A DNA stretch of 43,178 bases. Source: a virus. Positions 1-43,157 of this stretch are shown in pieces (the first letter of the stretch is position 1; every line of letters begins with the position of its first letter). The notes under the pieces were generated by a model. The model made no database searches, was not told the origin of the DNA, and saw only the letters and a list, made by a program, of their open reading frames with translations. The position numbers and the translations under genes are program-made. The stretch covers positions 1 through 43,178 of the IMG/VR virus record IMGVR_UViG_3300035191_000022, one strand, 5' to 3'.

Positions 1-126
1 ACTTATTTTCTTTTCAACATGAAGATCAAAAGGAATTCCGCTAACCGTACCTGCTGATTCAAGTACTCTTTTAAATTGTTTTTTCATAGACGGAATACTT
101 GATTCTTTCCCCTTTGTGTTCAGCCT
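1..126. repeat. Terminal direct repeat, left copy (circular overlap)
   Basis: These 126 bases are identical to 43032-43157. One open reading frame runs through the junction when the ends are joined, so the repeat is best read as assembly overlap of a circular or terminally redundant genome, not as two biological repeats. Confidence 0.95.
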
Positions 127-15152: not shown

Positions 15153-16328
15153 CTATAACTCAACCCACCAAATTGATCCAACGGTATTTACATTCCCGAA
15201 TATTTCATTAACGGCTTTTACCACTCCGCTGTAATTTTCCACATAATCATGTCCGCAAATTAATTTTCTGCATTTTGGAAGCCATGATTCAATATCAGCC
15301 TTACATTCTTCATAAGTATGTCCGGCATCTATAAAAACAGTATCTACTTTATCATTAAAATTTTCTGCAATTGCCGTAGAATACCCTCTTAACACTTTAA
15401 GGTTATCATAAAACCCCACATTACTTATAAACTCATCATAAACATTTAATCCGAATTTTGCCAAAATTGAATTATCACTTTCCGTACCGTTCCAATGATC
15501 TACTGCATATACGGTTCCTTTACAATTCTCCAGAAATACCTTAGTGCTTCTTCCCTTCCAGCTTCCAATTTCAACTATGCTGTCAGATTTTTTGGCTATC
15601 TCTTTTAAATATTCCAATTCATAATCAGCCATCCATCCTTTTATTCCACTTTCTACCGCATCCATAATTTCTACTCTGCGCCCCATTAAAAATTCATGCA
15701 GATTTCCCTTAAATTCCTGTGTCCCTATATGAATAAAAGTTATATCAGGTGCTACAAATATTTCACCTTTCATGTCTGTCCATTTTTTACAGAAAGCTAC
15801 ATCTTCTCCATACCAATTATTGTCATTTTCAAAAATCATTCCAGTTTCAAAAAATGAATAAATGTCTCTTTCGTCCGGTTTCATATTATAATGAGAAATC
15901 ATTCTTTCAAACACTCTTCTGTTTATCCTCATTAGTCCGGTTGGTGCTCTTTCTACGTATACTAACCCGGTAGACTCTTCTTTACAATTATTGTTTCTGC
16001 TGAAATCTAATGTAACAGTGTATTCTTCTATGGATTTTTTATAGCGGTAAGCTCCGGCTATTATATCTTTATCAAATTCAATTAATTTTAATAGCGCGTC
16101 ATCCTGAAAACTCAAATCAGAATCTATAAAAATTATATCATCACAATTTGATTTTAAGAATAAATTAACACAAAAATTTCTGGATCGTTCTATATAAAGA
16201 TCACTATTGTAAAGGGGCATAACAGTATGCCCCTTTGACATTAGTGACAAAGAATTTTTTAATATCGATTCAGAACATTTTCCATGTATCTGATCGTTAT
16301 AAAGGGTTATTCCTAAGAATAAATTCAT
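15153..16328 (-). CDS. Glycosyltransferase - SAM methyltransferase fusion (391 aa)
   Basis: Two enzymes in one chain. Residues 1-218 look like a GT-A glycosyltransferase, with the metal-binding IFIDSDLSF (66-74), AGAYRYKK (91-98) and YGEDVAFCKKW (173-183). Residues 219-391 look like a class I methyltransferase of the Methyltransf_24 type: VEIGSWKGRST (252-262) binds SAM, then VFIDAGHTYEEC (331-342) and CGHDY (358-362). It sits among coat and tail genes, so it may add and methylate a sugar on a virion or host surface. Substrate unknown; no nucleotide-sugar synthesis genes were seen. Confidence 0.8.
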   Translation of the reverse strand: MNLFLGITLYNDQIHGKCSESILKNSLSLMSKGHTVMPLYNSDLYIERSRNFCVNLFLKSNCDDIIFIDSDLSFQDDALLKLIEFDKDIIAGAYRYKKSIEEYTVTLDFSRNNNCKEESTGLVYVERAPTGLMRINRRVFERMISHYNMKPDERDIYSFFETGMIFENDNNWYGEDVAFCKKWTDMKGEIFVAPDITFIHIGTQEFKGNLHEFLMGRRVEIMDAVESGIKGWMADYELEYLKEIAKKSDSIVEIGSWKGRSTKVFLENCKGTVYAVDHWNGTESDNSILAKFGLNVYDEFISNVGFYDNLKVLRGYSTAIAENFNDKVDTVFIDAGHTYEECKADIESWLPKCRKLICGHDYVENYSGVVKAVNEIFGNVNTVGSIWWVEL

Positions 16329-18538: not shown

Positions 18539-19375
18539 CTAACTTTTCAAAAAAGTTAATAGTTTTGATTGTATTATATTACCAAAAGCATCCGTGCTAA
18601 CCTGACTTGCAATCTCGGTTATTGCAGCAGAGCTTATTGTTGCAGGAACTTCACCTGTCATTTCATCAGCTTCTATGTCGCCATCTGCATTTGCCGTACC
18701 CGTTAAGTAATCCTTAGACGGCAACTTGGCTATGATTTGATCTATTAATCCGTCAATCGTATCGATTTTGTCATTAAGAGTAGTCCCGGTATCTGTTAAA
18801 ATATTATCCACTATGCCGTCAATAACGTCTATTTTATCATTAAGAGTAGTCCCGGTATCTGTAAGAATAGCCGCTATATTGGCCGTATGATCTGCCGTTT
18901 GCGGAGTATGCCCTGTAAGAGTAGTAACGGTAGGAATAACGTTATTAGTTCCTGCGTATCCCGTTCCGTCAAAAAATGCTTCTGCGTTATCTGCCGCTGT
19001 TTCATCTTCAGAGATTGCTTTAATGTTGACATCCATGTATCCGTCGTCTTTAGCCGTGAACAAAGAATCATAAGCAGCTTCAGCAAGCACCATACATTCC
19101 ATCTTAACTTGTAACGCCCCCGATTCATGAACGATTATATCAAGCTGTCCTTCGGTATTAGTATCAGTAGTGTCAAGAGGACAATTATAATAACCAAGCT
19201 CATCATGCGTACAGGCATTAGCGTCGTTTTTCTGGGCCATATTCTGACCATTCTTACTGAGTCTTACATCTGCCTGTGAAATAGTAAGTCCGGTCTCATC
19301 TGTATTGCCGTCTGTACTGTCCACGAAAGGGCCTATTAAAACATCAACTGCCGTATTTGCTCTTAATAATTTCAT
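18539..19375 (-). CDS. Repeat-containing appendage protein (278 aa)
   Basis: A 278-aa protein. The N-terminal 110 residues are a beta domain (MKLLRANTAVDVLIGPFVD). Residues about 165-215 contain two copies of a 22-residue unit, ILTDTGTTLNDKIDxIDGxxD, encoded by a 66-bp DNA repeat; it should form a trimeric coiled-coil shaft. The last part (ISSAAITEIASQVSTDAFG) is helical. I expect a fibre or spike placed on the head or portal region. It overlaps the LamG gene by ATGA. Confidence 0.6.
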   Translation of the reverse strand: MKLLRANTAVDVLIGPFVDSTDGNTDETGLTISQADVRLSKNGQNMAQKNDANACTHDELGYYNCPLDTTDTNTEGQLDIIVHESGALQVKMECMVLAEAAYDSLFTAKDDGYMDVNIKAISEDETAADNAEAFFDGTGYAGTNNVIPTVTTLTGHTPQTADHTANIAAILTDTGTTLNDKIDVIDGIVDNILTDTGTTLNDKIDTIDGLIDQIIAKLPSKDYLTGTANADGDIEADEMTGEVPATISSAAITEIASQVSTDAFGNIIQSKLLTFLKS

Positions 19376-30827: not shown

Positions 30828-31589
30828 TCACCCTTCTTCTGTTTCTAAATATTTTTCTATATAATTCCTATCTTGAGTAAAAATTGAAATTTCATTATCT
30901 ACAAACCATTCACCATCTTCATTTTTTTTTACACATCGTCCTCGTTTCAAATCCATTCTTAAATCATTCCAATTCTTTCCTTTTTGAAAACACATTTCCT
31001 GAAGTTCTGAATTATTTTTTTTATGCAATTCTTTATGAGAATAAAGAGATTGTGCTAACATTTGAATACTATTCCTTTCCCAGTCTTTTTGTCTCCAAAT
31101 AAAATAATTACATACTTCTGCTTCCGGCAATACAAAGCAACGAGAATCGAATTGAATGTAAATATTGTTTGGTTGAACATATCCATCTCTTGTTGCAATC
31201 ATTTCACTATTGAAATTATCATTATATTTTATAGTAAAATAACTACTTGCCATTCCAGCACTAATACTACATATTTTTTGAATTTCATTGTTAAACCATG
31301 ATTGAGTATTTAATCTTTTATAATTATGAAGCAATAAAGAAATTTCATCTGACTGAATATAAGCTAACTGACAGGTATCAATATTCTTGCAAAGATATTT
31401 CACTGTATTATCCATTAAAGTTATAAATACAGAATCAAAAGGTTTTTCTGCTTTTTTAGTTAATGTATGAAAAGCTCTGCCATCAAGCCTTATGATCACA
31501 GGCATTCTTTCGGGAAGTTTATATTTAAAGATTTCTTCATAATTTTGTTTCATCCTTCCGCCTATGCTATTTTTATTATTATATTTCAT
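30828..31589 (-). CDS. Thg1-like 3'-5' RNA polymerase (tRNA-His guanylyltransferase family)
   Basis: A 253-aa protein of the Thg1 superfamily, which adds nucleotides to RNA 5' ends. RLDGRAFH (34-41) and QSDEIS (79-84) hold the metal-binding Asp36 and Asp81. FDSRCF (147-152) and YFIWRQKDWERNSI (162-175) follow, then SLYSHKELHKKN. The HINNLYNT motif of eukaryotic Thg1 is absent, so it groups with Thg1-like proteins (TLPs), which repair 5'-truncated tRNAs. It ends a four-gene overlapping cassette with an RlmN-like enzyme, so tRNA repair against host anticodon or tRNA nucleases is a reasonable inference. Confidence 0.85.
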   Translation of the reverse strand: MKYNNKNSIGGRMKQNYEEIFKYKLPERMPVIIRLDGRAFHTLTKKAEKPFDSVFITLMDNTVKYLCKNIDTCQLAYIQSDEISLLLHNYKRLNTQSWFNNEIQKICSISAGMASSYFTIKYNDNFNSEMIATRDGYVQPNNIYIQFDSRCFVLPEAEVCNYFIWRQKDWERNSIQMLAQSLYSHKELHKKNNSELQEMCFQKGKNWNDLRMDLKRGRCVKKNEDGEWFVDNEISIFTQDRNYIEKYLETEEG

Positions 31590-31840: not shown

Positions 31841-32234
31841 TCTTTAACCTCCTTAATTCATTTTTTAATATTATCTCAACATCACTTAAATTTATGCCGG
31901 TGTTGTTTTTCTGCATTGCAAATATATCGAATATGTTATCACCTTCACGCAGTTTAATATATGTATTAACCTGTTCGTGATAATAACCAGAAATTGACGG
32001 ATCTGGATTGTGTATGCCGTAAATATGTTCTTTCTTCGCAAGTGCTATACCGTTCCTTAAATCATAACGTAAAGCATTTGTTTTTTTTCCATAAACATGA
32101 TGAGCCTGTATAACGTCCCCATGCCACTCGCCGGATAATTCACTTTTCCCATCTGCCCTTAATTTAATTATCTGGCTCCACAATTTATCAAGTCTTTCTA
32201 TTCTTAATGTCTTATCTGATTTCTTGCGTTTCAT
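31833..32234 (-). CDS. HNH / NinG-like protein (133 aa)
   Basis: A 133-aa protein with IQAHHVYGKKTNALRYDLRNG (His45, His46, Asn62) and KKEHIYGIHNP, an HNH-type metal site most like that of lambda NinG/Rap recombination proteins. The CxxC zinc pair of typical NinG is missing, replaced by Ser/Glu residues. It overlaps the RlmN-like gene by 23 bp. It may cut DNA or, given its neighbours, RNA. Confidence 0.7.
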   Translation of the reverse strand: MKRKKSDKTLRIERLDKLWSQIIKLRADGKSELSGEWHGDVIQAHHVYGKKTNALRYDLRNGIALAKKEHIYGIHNPDPSISGYYHEQVNTYIKLREGDNIFDIFAMQKNNTGINLSDVEIILKNELRRLKNE

Positions 32235-33060
32235 TTAATTTTTCCTGAACATATAACAACTGACCACAACCACCACCAATAGTATCCTGTCCAGCAGGAT
32301 CAAAAATTTTTAACGATTGTTTTGGATTTATTTTTATTATTATATTGTACAATCTTTCGGCTTTTTTTATGTCTCCATTATTAAATCCATTTTTATCACA
32401 CAATACCGATATTGTTATATGATTATTTTTAACTATATTTAAAATTTGTTCTATTTCATATAATGTCTCATTTCCAGTAGAGATATAATTAAAATAAGCT
32501 AATCTTCCAGTTATTATTCTAAAAGAATTTGCCAATGCTTTTATACTGTCAATATCAAGCAATTCAGAATAATTCCCTAATAGTTTTTTACGTTTTTTGT
32601 CTTCATAATGATGTAAAGAAAACTGTAACCCAAATTTTTCATACCTCCTTCCTAGGTCAAAAATTTCAGTGTATAAATCACAATTTAATCCTACTGTGCT
32701 TATAAAAAAATGTTTACCTATATATAAATATTCACAAGCTACACGATAAACCGGTTCCCAATTATCCAGTGGCTCCCCCATACTCATTGCCATTATTTGT
32801 ATCTTATTGAAATTATTTACCTCTTTTAATAAAATATCTATTTGTAATTTCATTTCATTTATATTTAAATTTCTAATAAATCTTTTACCTGTTCCACAAA
32901 AACAACATCCAACCCGACATCCACTTTGAACAGAAAAACATATAACCGCTCTGTCGTCATATTTATATAAAACACTTTCTACAATTGCAGTCTCATCTTC
33001 AAATATAAATTTTGAAACAATACCATTTGGATCATTTATTCTTTTGGTAAGAGTTATCAT
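32212..33060 (-). CDS. RlmN/Cfr-like radical SAM enzyme (282 aa)
   Basis: Radical SAM cluster C48-x3-C52-x2-C55 (SGCRVGCCFC), followed by MSMGEPLDN (92-100), STVG (121-124), SLHH (148-151) and, near the end, GGCGQL with Cys265. These match RlmN, in which the C-terminal cysteine is methylated and passes a methyl group to C2 of adenosine in 23S rRNA and tRNA. It lacks the first 60-80 residues of RlmN (family about 350-380 aa), where the HhH-like RNA domain lies. First gene of the coupled cassette ending in the Thg1-like polymerase. A tRNA or rRNA adenosine is the likely target. Confidence 0.85.
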   Translation of the reverse strand: MITLTKRINDPNGIVSKFIFEDETAIVESVLYKYDDRAVICFSVQSGCRVGCCFCGTGKRFIRNLNINEMKLQIDILLKEVNNFNKIQIMAMSMGEPLDNWEPVYRVACEYLYIGKHFFISTVGLNCDLYTEIFDLGRRYEKFGLQFSLHHYEDKKRKKLLGNYSELLDIDSIKALANSFRIITGRLAYFNYISTGNETLYEIEQILNIVKNNHITISVLCDKNGFNNGDIKKAERLYNIIIKINPKQSLKIFDPAGQDTIGGGCGQLLYVQEKLNETQEIR

Positions 33061-36958: not shown

Positions 36959-38614
36959 TCAAAATTCTATCTCCCTAAATGTTTTAGTATCGCCATTGAA
37001 CCAAAAACCAACTTCCCCTTCCAGCCCCCATTCCCGATTTTTTTTAACATAAAGAATTGAATCTGCTGAGTCATCACCATTAGCCATATTATTCTTTTTT
37101 TCTTCAGCAGTTAATCGATAAAGTATAAGTACATTATCGGCAAGATTAACAATGTCGCCAGAGCCCGAAACATCAACTTTATCCGGTTTATCTGTATCTT
37201 TAAATCCCTTCCGGGGATGTGATACTAAATGCACGTGCCCTCCAAAGATTTTGGCAATTTTATCTATAAGATAATTACAAAACCCTTTTTGCTCCTCATA
37301 CTTATCATATCCAGTCAGATTAACTTTCATCAGCGAATCTAAAATAAAATGTTTTACTCCGTACTTCCGGGCGGCAAAAATAAATACATCAAATAATTCA
37401 CTTGCATTTACATTTCCGGCCAAATTCATCACAAATAGATTATCAAGTTCAGAAATACTTTCCCGCACTTCTTCCCGGTTTAATATCTTTTTCTGTTTAA
37501 TATGAGTAAGCATCCATTTGAGATATTTCCGGGGCATCATTTCAAGAGAAGCAATTATAACTTTCTCACCTTTTTTTAACAATGAATACACAACATCATT
37601 TAACATGGTTGACTTACCTGCACTTGATCTTCCCGACCAAACCGTTAATTCTCCTTCCCGCCATCCTTTTAATAATTCCGTAAGTCCTTTCCAGGGAGTC
37701 GATATACCGTACATTTTTTCAGGATGTTCAAACATATCTATAATTTCATCTTCGAAATCTTTTGCTTTTAATAATGTAGCTGGATCAAAATTTTTTGCAT
37801 TATCAATACATTCCTGAATTTTCTCAGGAGTTATATCATTCATCAAACATTCATTCATATCTTTATAAGGCAGAATAACATTATAGCATCGCCATTCCCC
37901 AAGCCTCTTTACTATCTCATCAATATTTTTTTGACCAGCATCATCGTTATCCAATGCTAAATAAATCTTTTGAAATTGATTAAGAAAATCCCATTCATGT
38001 TCAAGCCATCGCAAATCACTTGCTCCACTTGGAACACTCACGGCATCTAATCCGCATTGTGAAAAAGACAGTGTATCAATTTCACCTTCACAAATTATAA
38101 TATAATCTTTATCGCAAAAATCCCTACCGAATAATACCGGCTCTGCATTCTTCTCCTGCCTAAATTTTTTTTCTTTCATTGATCTATATTTGACATTTAC
38201 GATTTCGCCATTTTTAAAATATGGAAACATTATTTCGTTCTGCTGCTGACCGATTTTATACTGCTTGGTTATGGCTTCCCATATTCCCCGGCTCTGTAAC
38301 CATTTAATAGCTTCATTTGTTTTCCCGGATTTAACTACAGGTTTTTCATATTTTACAGGCATTCTGTATATATATTCATCATTATCTAATCGTTGAGGAG
38401 TATCTCCTAATTCCTGTTGCAATTGCCACCAACTGCCCTTTTTCCCGCATTTATTTATATGCAAACATGACCACGCACCATCAACAAGACTAATTGCAAA
38501 TTTATGTTCTTTATCATCACAAAAAGGACAATTTAAAATTGCTGTTAATCCTTTAGGCCGTTTTACTTCTTTCCAATTCCAGCCTTTTGATTGCATGTAA
38601 TTTCTAACATCCAT
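36959..38614 (-). CDS. Primase-helicase, T7 gp4-like (551 aa)
   Basis: A bifunctional replication protein. The N-terminal zinc finger uses Cys29, Cys32, Cys50 and Cys56 (NCPFC … CLHINKC). The TOPRIM primase core has CEGEID (Glu176) and LALDNDDAG (Asp222, Asp224). The RecA-like helicase has Walker A SGRSSAGKST (327-336), FILDS Walker B (about 430) and HLVSHPRKG. T7 gp4 has the same domain order and is 566 aa. It unwinds DNA and primes lagging strands. No phage DNA polymerase is encoded, so it probably works with the host replisome. Confidence 0.9.
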   Translation of the reverse strand: MDVRNYMQSKGWNWKEVKRPKGLTAILNCPFCDDKEHKFAISLVDGAWSCLHINKCGKKGSWWQLQQELGDTPQRLDNDEYIYRMPVKYEKPVVKSGKTNEAIKWLQSRGIWEAITKQYKIGQQQNEIMFPYFKNGEIVNVKYRSMKEKKFRQEKNAEPVLFGRDFCDKDYIIICEGEIDTLSFSQCGLDAVSVPSGASDLRWLEHEWDFLNQFQKIYLALDNDDAGQKNIDEIVKRLGEWRCYNVILPYKDMNECLMNDITPEKIQECIDNAKNFDPATLLKAKDFEDEIIDMFEHPEKMYGISTPWKGLTELLKGWREGELTVWSGRSSAGKSTMLNDVVYSLLKKGEKVIIASLEMMPRKYLKWMLTHIKQKKILNREEVRESISELDNLFVMNLAGNVNASELFDVFIFAARKYGVKHFILDSLMKVNLTGYDKYEEQKGFCNYLIDKIAKIFGGHVHLVSHPRKGFKDTDKPDKVDVSGSGDIVNLADNVLILYRLTAEEKKNNMANGDDSADSILYVKKNREWGLEGEVGFWFNGDTKTFREIEF

Positions 38615-38678: not shown

Positions 38679-39473
38679 TTATGATTCAGATATTGATTGA
38701 TTAGCTTTTTCTTTAATGCCTTTCGGAATAGCTCCGACTGAAGTTTTAGGTTTATCATTTTTGTTTTCCATTTGCAATTTTAATGTATCGAATTTTTCTC
38801 TAAATTTTTTTGTTGATAATATATTACTTTTCCAAAAATTATCTTTCATTGCCCATATCCAGACTTTATGCATTGTGTCATAATCTATTACTTTATTTAA
38901 TATTTTTAACTCTTCAGACCATTTATTTAAATTAGGCTTATTGTTTTTATATCGTGTTAAATTATTATATGTCATTAAATCATCATAAAATATTTTTGTA
39001 TAAAATAAAGCATCTTTATCTATTTCTTTTATCTTTTCTTTCTTCTCTTCTCTCTTCTCTGTGTTACATGTGTTACCGTCTGTTACAAGAATGTTACTTT
39101 GTAACAATTTCTTCTTTTCTCTATGCTTTCTTACTCTTTCCGCTACTTGTGTTTCACTCCCTATTAAATGTTGTAATAAATTAAGGTATATAGTTTCATC
39201 GTCCCATATTTCTATTGTTCCCATGTTCTCAAGAGCTTTCAAAGTTAATTTGATTATGTTTATATCTTCATCTAAAAACAAAGCCAATTCTTCTTCTTTA
39301 GATGGCATTATTTTTTCAAATTTTAATATTCCTTCTGTCTTTAAAGACTTTAATTGCATTTTCAAATAAACTATTACTAATTGATCTCCATCTGGTAATT
39401 TTCTTAATGCCCTGATATGTTTTTCTTCAAAAAAATCATCTTTTAATTTTAACCAATAGTAACGTTTTTCCAT
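38679..39473 (-). CDS. Replisome organizer / replication initiation protein (264 aa)
   Basis: A 264-aa protein with the N-terminal replisome-organizer domain: YYWLKLKDDFFEEKHIRALR, LVIVYLKMQLKSLKTEG, LALFLDEDINIIKLTLKALE, EIWDDETIYL. This winged-helix domain binds origin DNA in phages of Gram-positive bacteria and some others. The C-terminus is Lys/Asn-rich. The frame is open to 39608, but the family start is MEKRYYW and ATG 39473 has GGAG 7 nt upstream; the longer frame covers a structured RNA leader. It probably loads the downstream primase-helicase. Confidence 0.85.
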   Translation of the reverse strand: MEKRYYWLKLKDDFFEEKHIRALRKLPDGDQLVIVYLKMQLKSLKTEGILKFEKIMPSKEEELALFLDEDINIIKLTLKALENMGTIEIWDDETIYLNLLQHLIGSETQVAERVRKHREKKKLLQSNILVTDGNTCNTEKREEKKEKIKEIDKDALFYTKIFYDDLMTYNNLTRYKNNKPNLNKWSEELKILNKVIDYDTMHKVWIWAMKDNFWKSNILSTKKFREKFDTLKLQMENKNDKPKTSVGAIPKGIKEKANQSISES

Positions 39474-39490
39474 TCTTTGCTCCAATAAAA

Positions 39491-39583
39491 AAAGCCGCTC
39501 TCTCTGGTGGCTCCCCAAGAGGAAGACGTCAATGCGACTTCCTGCCACCAGACAAAACGGCTTTGATTTTTCGACCTTGGGGA
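39491..39583 (-). ncRNA. Pseudoknot leader RNA with intrinsic terminator
   Basis: On the minus strand the 5' leader of the replisome-organizer gene holds four paired elements. CTTGGGGA at 39576-39583 pairs with 39512-39519. CGGCTTT at 39558-39564 pairs with AAAGCCG at 39491-39497. GCCACCAGA at 39544-39552 pairs with TCTGGTGGC at 39503-39511. CTTCCT at 39538-39543 pairs with AGGAAG at 39520-39525. The first pairing crosses the next two, making a pseudoknot. In the transcript the outer stem ends in CGGC followed by seven U residues, 10 nt before the SD. This is the outline of a riboswitch or attenuator; no known class was recognised. Confidence 0.75.
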
Positions 39584-39606
39584 AAGTCTTATTTAAATTT
39601 ATCATC

Positions 39607-39635
39607 ACATTAACCTATAGTGATTTACTTGTCAA
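39607..39635 (-). promoter_or_regulatory. Promoter before the pseudoknot leader
   Basis: TTGACA (39635-39630), 17-bp spacer and TAATGT (39612-39607). The transcript would start near 39600, giving a leader of about 127 nt that contains the whole pseudoknot. The -35 overlaps the end of the upstream small gene. Confidence 0.5.
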
Positions 39636-42814: not shown

Positions 42815-43157
42815 TTTGTCCTTCCAATTCAAGCTGGTATTCAGCATCAATTGTGTTTTCAACTTCTTCCGGTATTTCGGGTATTTGTTTTAGTGATTCA
42901 ATTTTTTCTTCCGTTAGCAATCCGATAAATTTTTTATCAGGAAGAAGTTCTTTTATCATTTCTATATGTGGTTGACTTAAATTCGGTGTGAGATGTAGCA
43001 CAGGAAATTTATTTTTTGACCCTGGCTTATAACTTATTTTCTTTTCAACATGAAGATCAAAAGGAATTCCGCTAACCGTACCTGCTGATTCAAGTACTCT
43101 TTTAAATTGTTTTTTCATAGACGGAATACTTGATTCTTTCCCCTTTGTGTTCAGCCT
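42804..43157 (-). CDS. Recombination-directionality-factor-like protein (3' part; joins 576-1)
   Basis: C-terminal part of the protein that starts at 576; 43032-43157 duplicates bases 1-126. The unique part (43031-42804) encodes the acidic C-terminus, including NLSQPHIEMIKELLPDKKF and EIPEEVENTIDAEYQ. Residues read upstream of 43157 are created by the fold-back at the contig end and are not real. Confidence 0.7.
   Translation of the reverse strand, partial: RLNTKGKESSIPSMKKQFKRVLESAGTVSGIPFDLHVEKKISYKPGSKNKFPVLHLTPNLSQPHIEMIKELLPDKKFIGLLTEEKIESLKQIPEIPEEVENTIDAEYQLELEGQNET
43032..43157. repeat. Terminal direct repeat, right copy
   Basis: Exact copy of 1-126. Joining the copies closes a 43,031-bp circle and restores one intact gene. 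Confidence 0.95.

What the first reader, a model, noticed from the sequence alone, without database searches (positions are those of the whole stretch)
39491..39635. Pseudoknot leader with built-in terminator controlling the replisome-organizer gene
Between a sigma70-type promoter and the SD of the replication initiator, four complementary blocks form nested stems crossed by an 8-bp pairing (TCCCCAAG/CTTGGGGA). The outer stem ends in seven U residues only 10 nt before the SD, so folding would stop transcription or hide the start. That is the form of a riboswitch, attenuator or antisense-RNA target that sets replication timing. I recognise no known riboswitch class. It could also act as DNA, as an origin element bound by the initiator.
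Basis: partly seen in the sequence, partly recalled or inferred. Interest (0 to 1): 0.8.

Follow-up and report, generated by a model that had tools for sequence, protein, structure and literature searches.

The report
Pseudoknotted terminator leader before phage initiator
A stretch of DNA just before a phage's replication-initiator gene very probably makes a folded RNA that can stop transcription; unrelated phages carry RNAs of the same shape but different sequence there, so it looks like a switch that controls when the phage copies its DNA.

Summary
On the minus strand of this phage, a perfect -35 (weak -10), a small hairpin H1, a long hairpin H2 ending in seven U's, and an SD lie directly before a PF09681 replisome-organizer gene. 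An 8-bp helix S1:S1' (UCCCCAAG/CUUGGGGA, 10 bp with flanks) joins the H1 loop to a bulge in H2. Folding z is -5.2; the S1:S1' match has P 0.001-0.005 against shuffles. No Rfam family matches. The window has no close relative, but about eight other lineages of initiator leaders show the same plan with unrelated sequences: H1, then H2 (usually a terminator), with complementary loops. Terminators elsewhere in the same DNA rarely do (4.8% at P<=0.03). In Fusobacterium prophages the helix exists in four sequence types with compensatory changes, independent of the downstream gene. This argues for an RNA element and against initiator DNA sites, coding sequence, or a conserved ligand aptamer. No antisense promoter was found. 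Best explanation: a cis-acting transcription attenuator for the initiator gene, whose terminator is tied by a pseudoknot to the 5' hairpin. The input signal is unknown. A trans-acting, immunity-like use of the same pairing (compare phage P4) is possible but unproven. Nothing was tested experimentally.

The parts
39630..39635 (-). -35 element TTGACA
   Evidence: sequence; best sense promoter-like site in 330 nt, P 0.05 vs shuffles
39607..39612 (-). -10-like element TAATGT (weak, 3 of 6), spacer 17; ends 133 nt before ATG
   Evidence: not listed by the stricter consensus scan
39573..39588 (-). hairpin H1 GACUUUCCCCAAGGUC, shows S1 in its loop
   Evidence: fold of the segment, -4.1 kcal/mol
39576..39583 (-). 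S1, 5' strand of the crossing helix, TCCCCAAG
   Evidence: P 0.001-0.005 vs shuffled upstream RNA
39491..39564 (-). hairpin H2 (terminator stem; outer 11 bp + inner 9 bp + apical hairpin), -43.4 kcal/mol
39512..39519 (-). S1', 3' strand of the crossing helix, CTTGGGGA; the 8-nt bulge of H2, abutting the 3' arm of the inner stem
39487..39493 (-). U7 tract of the intrinsic terminator
   Evidence: sequence
39480..39483 (-). Shine-Dalgarno GGAG
   Evidence: sequence
38679..39473 (-). replisome-organizer (replication initiator) gene, 264 aa, PF09681 / TIGR01714
36959..38614 (-). downstream primase/helicase of the same replication module

Best explanation
A cis-acting RNA attenuator of the replication-initiator gene. 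Transcription starts just upstream (or reads in from the operon), H1 forms, then H2 emerges. S1' in H2 can pair with S1 in H1 before the 3' arm of H2 has been made. Whether the full H2 stem plus U7 then forms decides between a ~120-nt terminated leader RNA and read-through into the initiator gene, so the S1:S1' helix ties the 5' hairpin to the terminator and is the control point. Shown: the elements, their more-than-chance pairing, and the recurrence of the plan. Inferred: that H2 terminates, that S1:S1' forms, that it changes termination, and which way. The input (protein, RNA from other genome copies, transcription or translation state) is unknown.
For: Leader fold z -5.2; S1:S1' P 0.001-0.005; sense fold -48.8 vs antisense -42.5 kcal/mol. 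When terminators before initiator genes are found first and loop complementarity tested afterwards, the window, L234, L053, L281, L273 (P<=0.03) and L213/L114 (0.025/0.045) pass; of 334 terminator-like hairpins elsewhere in the same DNA only 16 do at P<=0.03 (4.8%). Sense promoters end 132-178 nt before ATG in eight such leaders and 272 nt before in a ninth. L053 (62% identical initiator N-terminus) has promoter end, S1 and S1' at -132, -119, -45; the window at -133, -110, -46; no sequence similarity. L273 against L114: UGACGG/CCGUCA against UGGCGG/CCGCCA, compensatory. Fusobacterium leaders: H1 99.5% of cells paired with five double-sided pairs; S1:S1' in four types.
Against: The window's leader has no close relative, so S1:S1' has no covariation test in its own lineage. 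The long H2 stem can form with S1' simply bulged, so S1:S1' need not affect termination. The -10 is weak. Most initiator genes of this family have no such leader. The Fusobacterium leaders, which give the best covariation, lack a U-tract, so their output step must differ. The Lachnospiraceae (P 0.03-0.38) and L221 (0.23) cases are weak one by one.
Confidence: 0.55

Rival explanations
1. RNA-based replication immunity or copy-number control: the terminated leader is a stable small RNA whose S1 (or S1') pairs in trans with the nascent leader of other genome copies and enforces termination or blocks translation, as phage P4 CI RNA does on the leader of its replication operon. S1/S1' would be the specificity determinant.
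For: The helix differs in every lineage while the plan stays. In Fusobacterium prophages its four types are decoupled from the downstream gene: same gene with different types (L332/L335, L337/L338, L130/L131, L330/L333), same type before unrelated genes (L072 PF09681, L130 HTH_36). Two hosts with two such prophages each carry different types. P4 and IsrK precedents are described in PMC4825925.
Against: Only two double-lysogen hosts; both differing has a chance of about 0.4 from the type frequencies. S1 and S1' also pair in cis, so a trans effect is not required. No integrase or repressor was recognised among the window proteins scanned, so the window phage may not be temperate. One S1 can pair with a neighbouring type through G-U (B' with B).
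Confidence: 0.2
2. A separate small RNA with a function in trans unrelated to the initiator gene, which merely sits before it and ends in a terminator.
For: Own promoter and terminator give a discrete compact RNA of about 120 nt.
Against: The plan recurs directly before replication initiators in many phages, mostly 17-33 nt before ATG for the terminator-type leaders, and no other promoter fits between H2 and the gene, so all initiator mRNA must pass H2.
Confidence: 0.1
3. A DNA element: S1/S1' are inverted binding sites of the initiator, or the strand forms an origin hairpin.
For: The single strand also folds as DNA (z -4.4); origins near initiator genes are common (general knowledge).
Against: No excess of the motif in the genome (20 near-matches, 22 expected); sense strand more stable than antisense in 15 of 16 leaders; U-tract and SD placement; in Fusobacterium prophages the DNA-binding domain is 93% identical where S1 differs and unrelated where S1 is the same.
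Confidence: 0.07
4. Ordinary operon terminator plus chance complementarity, without regulation.
Against: The unbiased test over other initiator leaders and the control terminators, and Fusobacterium covariation.
Confidence: 0.08

Closest known systems
Phage P4 immunity (CI RNA, seqA/seqC; described in PMC4825925)
   Same: Untranslated leader of a replication operon, premature transcription termination, short complementary sequences within one leader.
   Different: P4 CI RNA is a processed antisense RNA that pairs with two target sites; here one complementary pair is seen, in cis, with an intrinsic terminator directly before the SD. No trans action is shown.
IsrK of prophage Gifsy-1 (PMC4825925)
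   Same: Promoter and terminator give a short RNA, read-through gives an mRNA.
   Different: IsrK controls an antiterminator locus, not a replication initiator; short IsrK activates translation.
c4 antisense RNA (RF01695; listed in PMC2864571)
   Same: Phage regulatory RNA; by own knowledge it lies 5' of its target on the same transcript.
   Different: No Rfam match here.
Cobalamin riboswitch L5-L13 kissing loop (PMC10907184)
   Same: A 5' hairpin loop kisses the loop of the expression-platform hairpin.
   Different: No cobalamin aptamer, no conserved core.
Antisense-controlled attenuation of plasmid rep genes (pT181, pIP501; own knowledge)
   Same: Terminator in the leader of an initiator gene.
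   Different: No antisense promoter found; S1' lies in a bulge of H2, not in a terminator arm.
IncI-alpha/IncB repZ activator pseudoknot (own knowledge)
   Same: Long-range loop pairing just before the initiator RBS; closest to the Fusobacterium leaders, where CUCUCC could pair with the SD.
   Different: No leader-peptide or antisense gene seen; window form ends in a terminator.
STAXI motif (PMC2864571)
   Same: Pseudoknot near DNA-handling genes of mobile elements.
   Different: STAXI is repeated two or three times and often has UUCG loops; this is a single unit.

Membership tests
Intrinsic-terminator attenuator | GC-rich hairpin followed by a U-tract in the 5' leader | tested here: met
   H2 -43.4 kcal/mol + U7, 17 nt before ATG
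Intrinsic-terminator attenuator | an alternative, mutually exclusive antiterminator fold | tested here: inconclusive
   S1:S1' pairs with a bulge, not an arm, of H2; geometry and kinetics not testable here. H1 in L114, L281, L221, L234 looks bistable by eye; not seen for the window
Intrinsic-terminator attenuator | regulated termination in vitro or in vivo | not testable with these tools
   no expression data
Known riboswitch classes (Rfam 15) | match to a covariance model at gathering score | tested here: not met
   0 matches; best riboswitch below threshold is SAM-SAH at 16.3 bits vs 40
c4 antisense RNA (RF01695) | match to the family model | tested here: not met
pT181/pIP501-type antisense attenuation | countertranscript promoter over the leader | tested here: not met
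   best antisense site in the window P 0.17 vs shuffles, and it reads away from H2 at the 5' end of the leader
P4-type RNA immunity | RNA that acts in trans on the nascent leader | not testable with these tools
   needs expression of the leader RNA in trans
P4-type RNA immunity | two target sites complementary to one RNA segment | tested here: not met
   one S1/S1' pair in the leader; only other exact copy at 37896 in the primase gene
Iteron origin | several copies of the binding site near the initiator gene | tested here: not met
   no excess of the motif in the window

The most novel reading that the evidence does not exclude
A widespread, so far undescribed RNA control system of phage replication in Bacillota and Fusobacteriota phages: a hypervariable kissing helix between a 5' hairpin and the hairpin before the initiator RBS works as an exchangeable, sequence-specific immunity or copy-number determinant, independent of the initiator protein it controls.
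Probability: 0.2. Interest if true: 0.85.

Novelty: new variant of a known kind. Interest (0 to 1): 0.62.

Why it matters
Initiator expression is the step that commits a phage to replication. A shared RNA plan with freely changing pairing sequence, moved between unrelated initiator genes, would be a new regulatory layer in phages of anaerobic Gram-positives and Fusobacterium, would explain superinfection exclusion without a protein repressor if it acts in trans, and can be tested with short synthetic leaders.

Tried and rejected
Exact-pattern search for the window's leader in IMG/VR gave four chance hits. Close relatives by P0001 or the primase: none. BLASTN of the leader against phages: chance hits only. 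Streptococcal and most clostridial relatives have no leader because the gene follows another gene directly; plasmid relatives likewise or with other hairpins. The ORF that is open through the leader from GTG 39608 was rejected as an N-terminal extension: relatives start at the same M as the ATG with SD. Antisense RNA: no promoter. 'Three places' in phage Funu2 were the two strands of the same hairpin. The automatic pair count for the Fusobacterium S1 helix is off register between types because of an indel, so it was recounted by hand-anchored pairs. The specificity matrix is partly selected for the non-Fusobacterium rows, because their S1/S1' were chosen as best pairs.

Full report
What is there. 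On the minus strand, between a small ORF ending at 39632 and the replisome-organizer gene (ATG 39473; PF09681 E 2.1e-24; TIGR01714), lie TTGACA/TAATGT, hairpin H1, hairpin H2 with a U7 tail, and GGAG. The MFE leaves exactly the eight bases CTTGGGGA of H2 unpaired as a bulge; TCCCCAAG, 56 nt upstream, is their perfect complement. The leader folds much better than shuffles (z -5.2), the crossing helix is rare by chance (P 0.005; 0.001-0.004), and the transcribed strand is the more stable one (-48.8 vs -42.5). H1+H2 has 50% G+C in a 35% G+C genome. The consensus terminator scan does not list H2; its rules allow a loop of at most 8 nt with an uninterrupted stem, which H2 does not have.

The window. 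It is an IMG/VR phage record with a 126-bp direct terminal repeat, P22-like portal and a primase/helicase behind the initiator. It has no close relative of this region in the collections searched, so relatives of the initiator protein were used instead: 80 viral loci, 80 genome loci, 80 more viral loci.

Same plan elsewhere. Most initiator genes of the family have no leader. Where a terminator-like hairpin precedes the gene, its loop is usually complementary to an upstream hairpin loop: L234 GUCACGG/CCGUGAC, L281 GUGGUUG/CAACCAC, L053 ACAAGUUGAG/UUCAACUUGU, L114 and L213 UGGCGGUU/AGCCGCCA, L063 UGGCGGU/GCCGCCA, L273 UGACGGU/GCCGUCA, L221 GUGGUUC/GAGCCAC, the Lachnospiraceae group UUCCCA/UGGGAA. 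The test found terminators first and only then asked for complementarity. Taking lineages, five of nine real non-coding terminators have P<=0.03 (window, L234, L053, L281, L273) and the L114 group has 0.025, 0.045 and 0.119; L135 has none. Among 334 terminator-like hairpins elsewhere in the same loci 16 (4.8%) reach 0.03. Sense promoters stand at matching distance (132-178 nt, L063 272 nt) and no antisense promoter stands out except a site at the 5' end of L273. L053, whose initiator N-terminus is 62% identical to the window's, has nearly the same layout position by position without sequence similarity.

Covariation. The L114 group changes G-C to A-U in the kissing helix (L273). The clearest case is the Fusobacterium prophages: invariant GCTCTCCAARTAYAYAGGAGG before the gene (this was the search pattern, so its invariance there is by construction; L131 and L072 were found independently), H1 with 99.5% of cells paired and five pairs changed on both sides, and S1:S1' in four types: GCCUGUC/GACAGGC, GCUUUGGCAG/CUGCCGAAGC, GCUUUGGUAG/CUACCAAGGC, GCUUGU/GCAAGC. 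Types do not follow the downstream gene: Funu2 and FNU4 share 93% of the HTH_36 region but differ in type; L072 and Funu2 share type and C-terminus but have unrelated DNA-binding domains; L330 and L333 have an HNH-like gene and differ in type. For that lineage this speaks strongly against S1/S1' being binding sites of the initiator. Those leaders have no U-tract; CUCUCC may instead pair with the SD (inference).

How it works. H2 must be crossed by every transcript into the initiator gene, because only 17 nt lie between H2 and ATG. S1' is transcribed before the 3' arm of H2, so S1:S1' can form first and influence whether the terminator closes. The direction of the effect is not known from sequence. 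A ligand-sensing riboswitch is unlikely because nothing but the pairing is shared. The same pairing in trans would give immunity or copy-number control as in phage P4 (PMC4825925). The decoupled, hypervariable types and the two double-lysogen hosts with different types fit this, but the latter has a chance of about 0.4, and the window shows no recognised lysogeny gene among the proteins scanned.

Known systems. No Rfam 15 match. Literature searches in the open-access library for replisome organizer with kissing or with small RNA and terminator returned nothing, and wider searches showed no title or abstract describing this leader; subscription journals are not covered. I therefore call it a new variant of a known kind (leader attenuator/antisense-like RNA control of an initiator), with a more novel reading left open.

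Limits. No experiment; the window itself lacks homologues for covariation; the lineages may be convergent rather than homologous; the first examples were seen by eye before the systematic scan; the Lachnospiraceae and L221 cases are weak alone.

Noticed in passing
window 30828-31589 (-): Phage-encoded Thg1-like tRNA-His guanylyltransferase (PF04446, 1.4e-31), unusual in a phage.
   Followed up: no
window 32212-33060 (-): RlmN/Cfr-like radical SAM protein, well below the NCBIfam cut-offs (TIGR00048 75 bits vs 290), so a divergent RNA-methyltransferase relative.
   Followed up: partly
window 1-126 and 43032-43157: 126-bp direct terminal repeat: the record is probably a complete circularly assembled genome.
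   Followed up: no
window 18735-18866: Two tandem 66-nt units, 79% alike, inside a virion-region ORF.
   Followed up: no
window 15153-16328 (-): 391-aa protein with a Methyltransf_24 domain in the virion gene region (PF13578, 1.9e-17).
   Followed up: no
L131:1980-2110 and L072 about 1420-1530: Conserved structured-looking stretch (CTAAGGCTAGTCCTTAGACACATAGCC...TGTGGCTATCTGTGT) in the long intergenic region upstream of the Fusobacterium initiator leader; no Rfam match.
   Followed up: no
L114, L213, L063, L281, L221, L234 leaders: H1 looks bistable by eye: its 5' arm can pair with a near or a far partner, the near pairing giving a small loop that shows S1 (sequences).
   Followed up: no
L325:720-775, L304, L309, L310: Another group of initiator genes (Anaerococcus plasmid pAPRE01 and relatives) preceded by short repeats of the type TTCCGAAAATCGGAA, possibly protein-binding repeats.
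   Followed up: no
L313, L314 upstream of the gene: A different long hairpin leader (TTAGAGGGC...GGCCCTCTAA) before the initiator gene.
   Followed up: no
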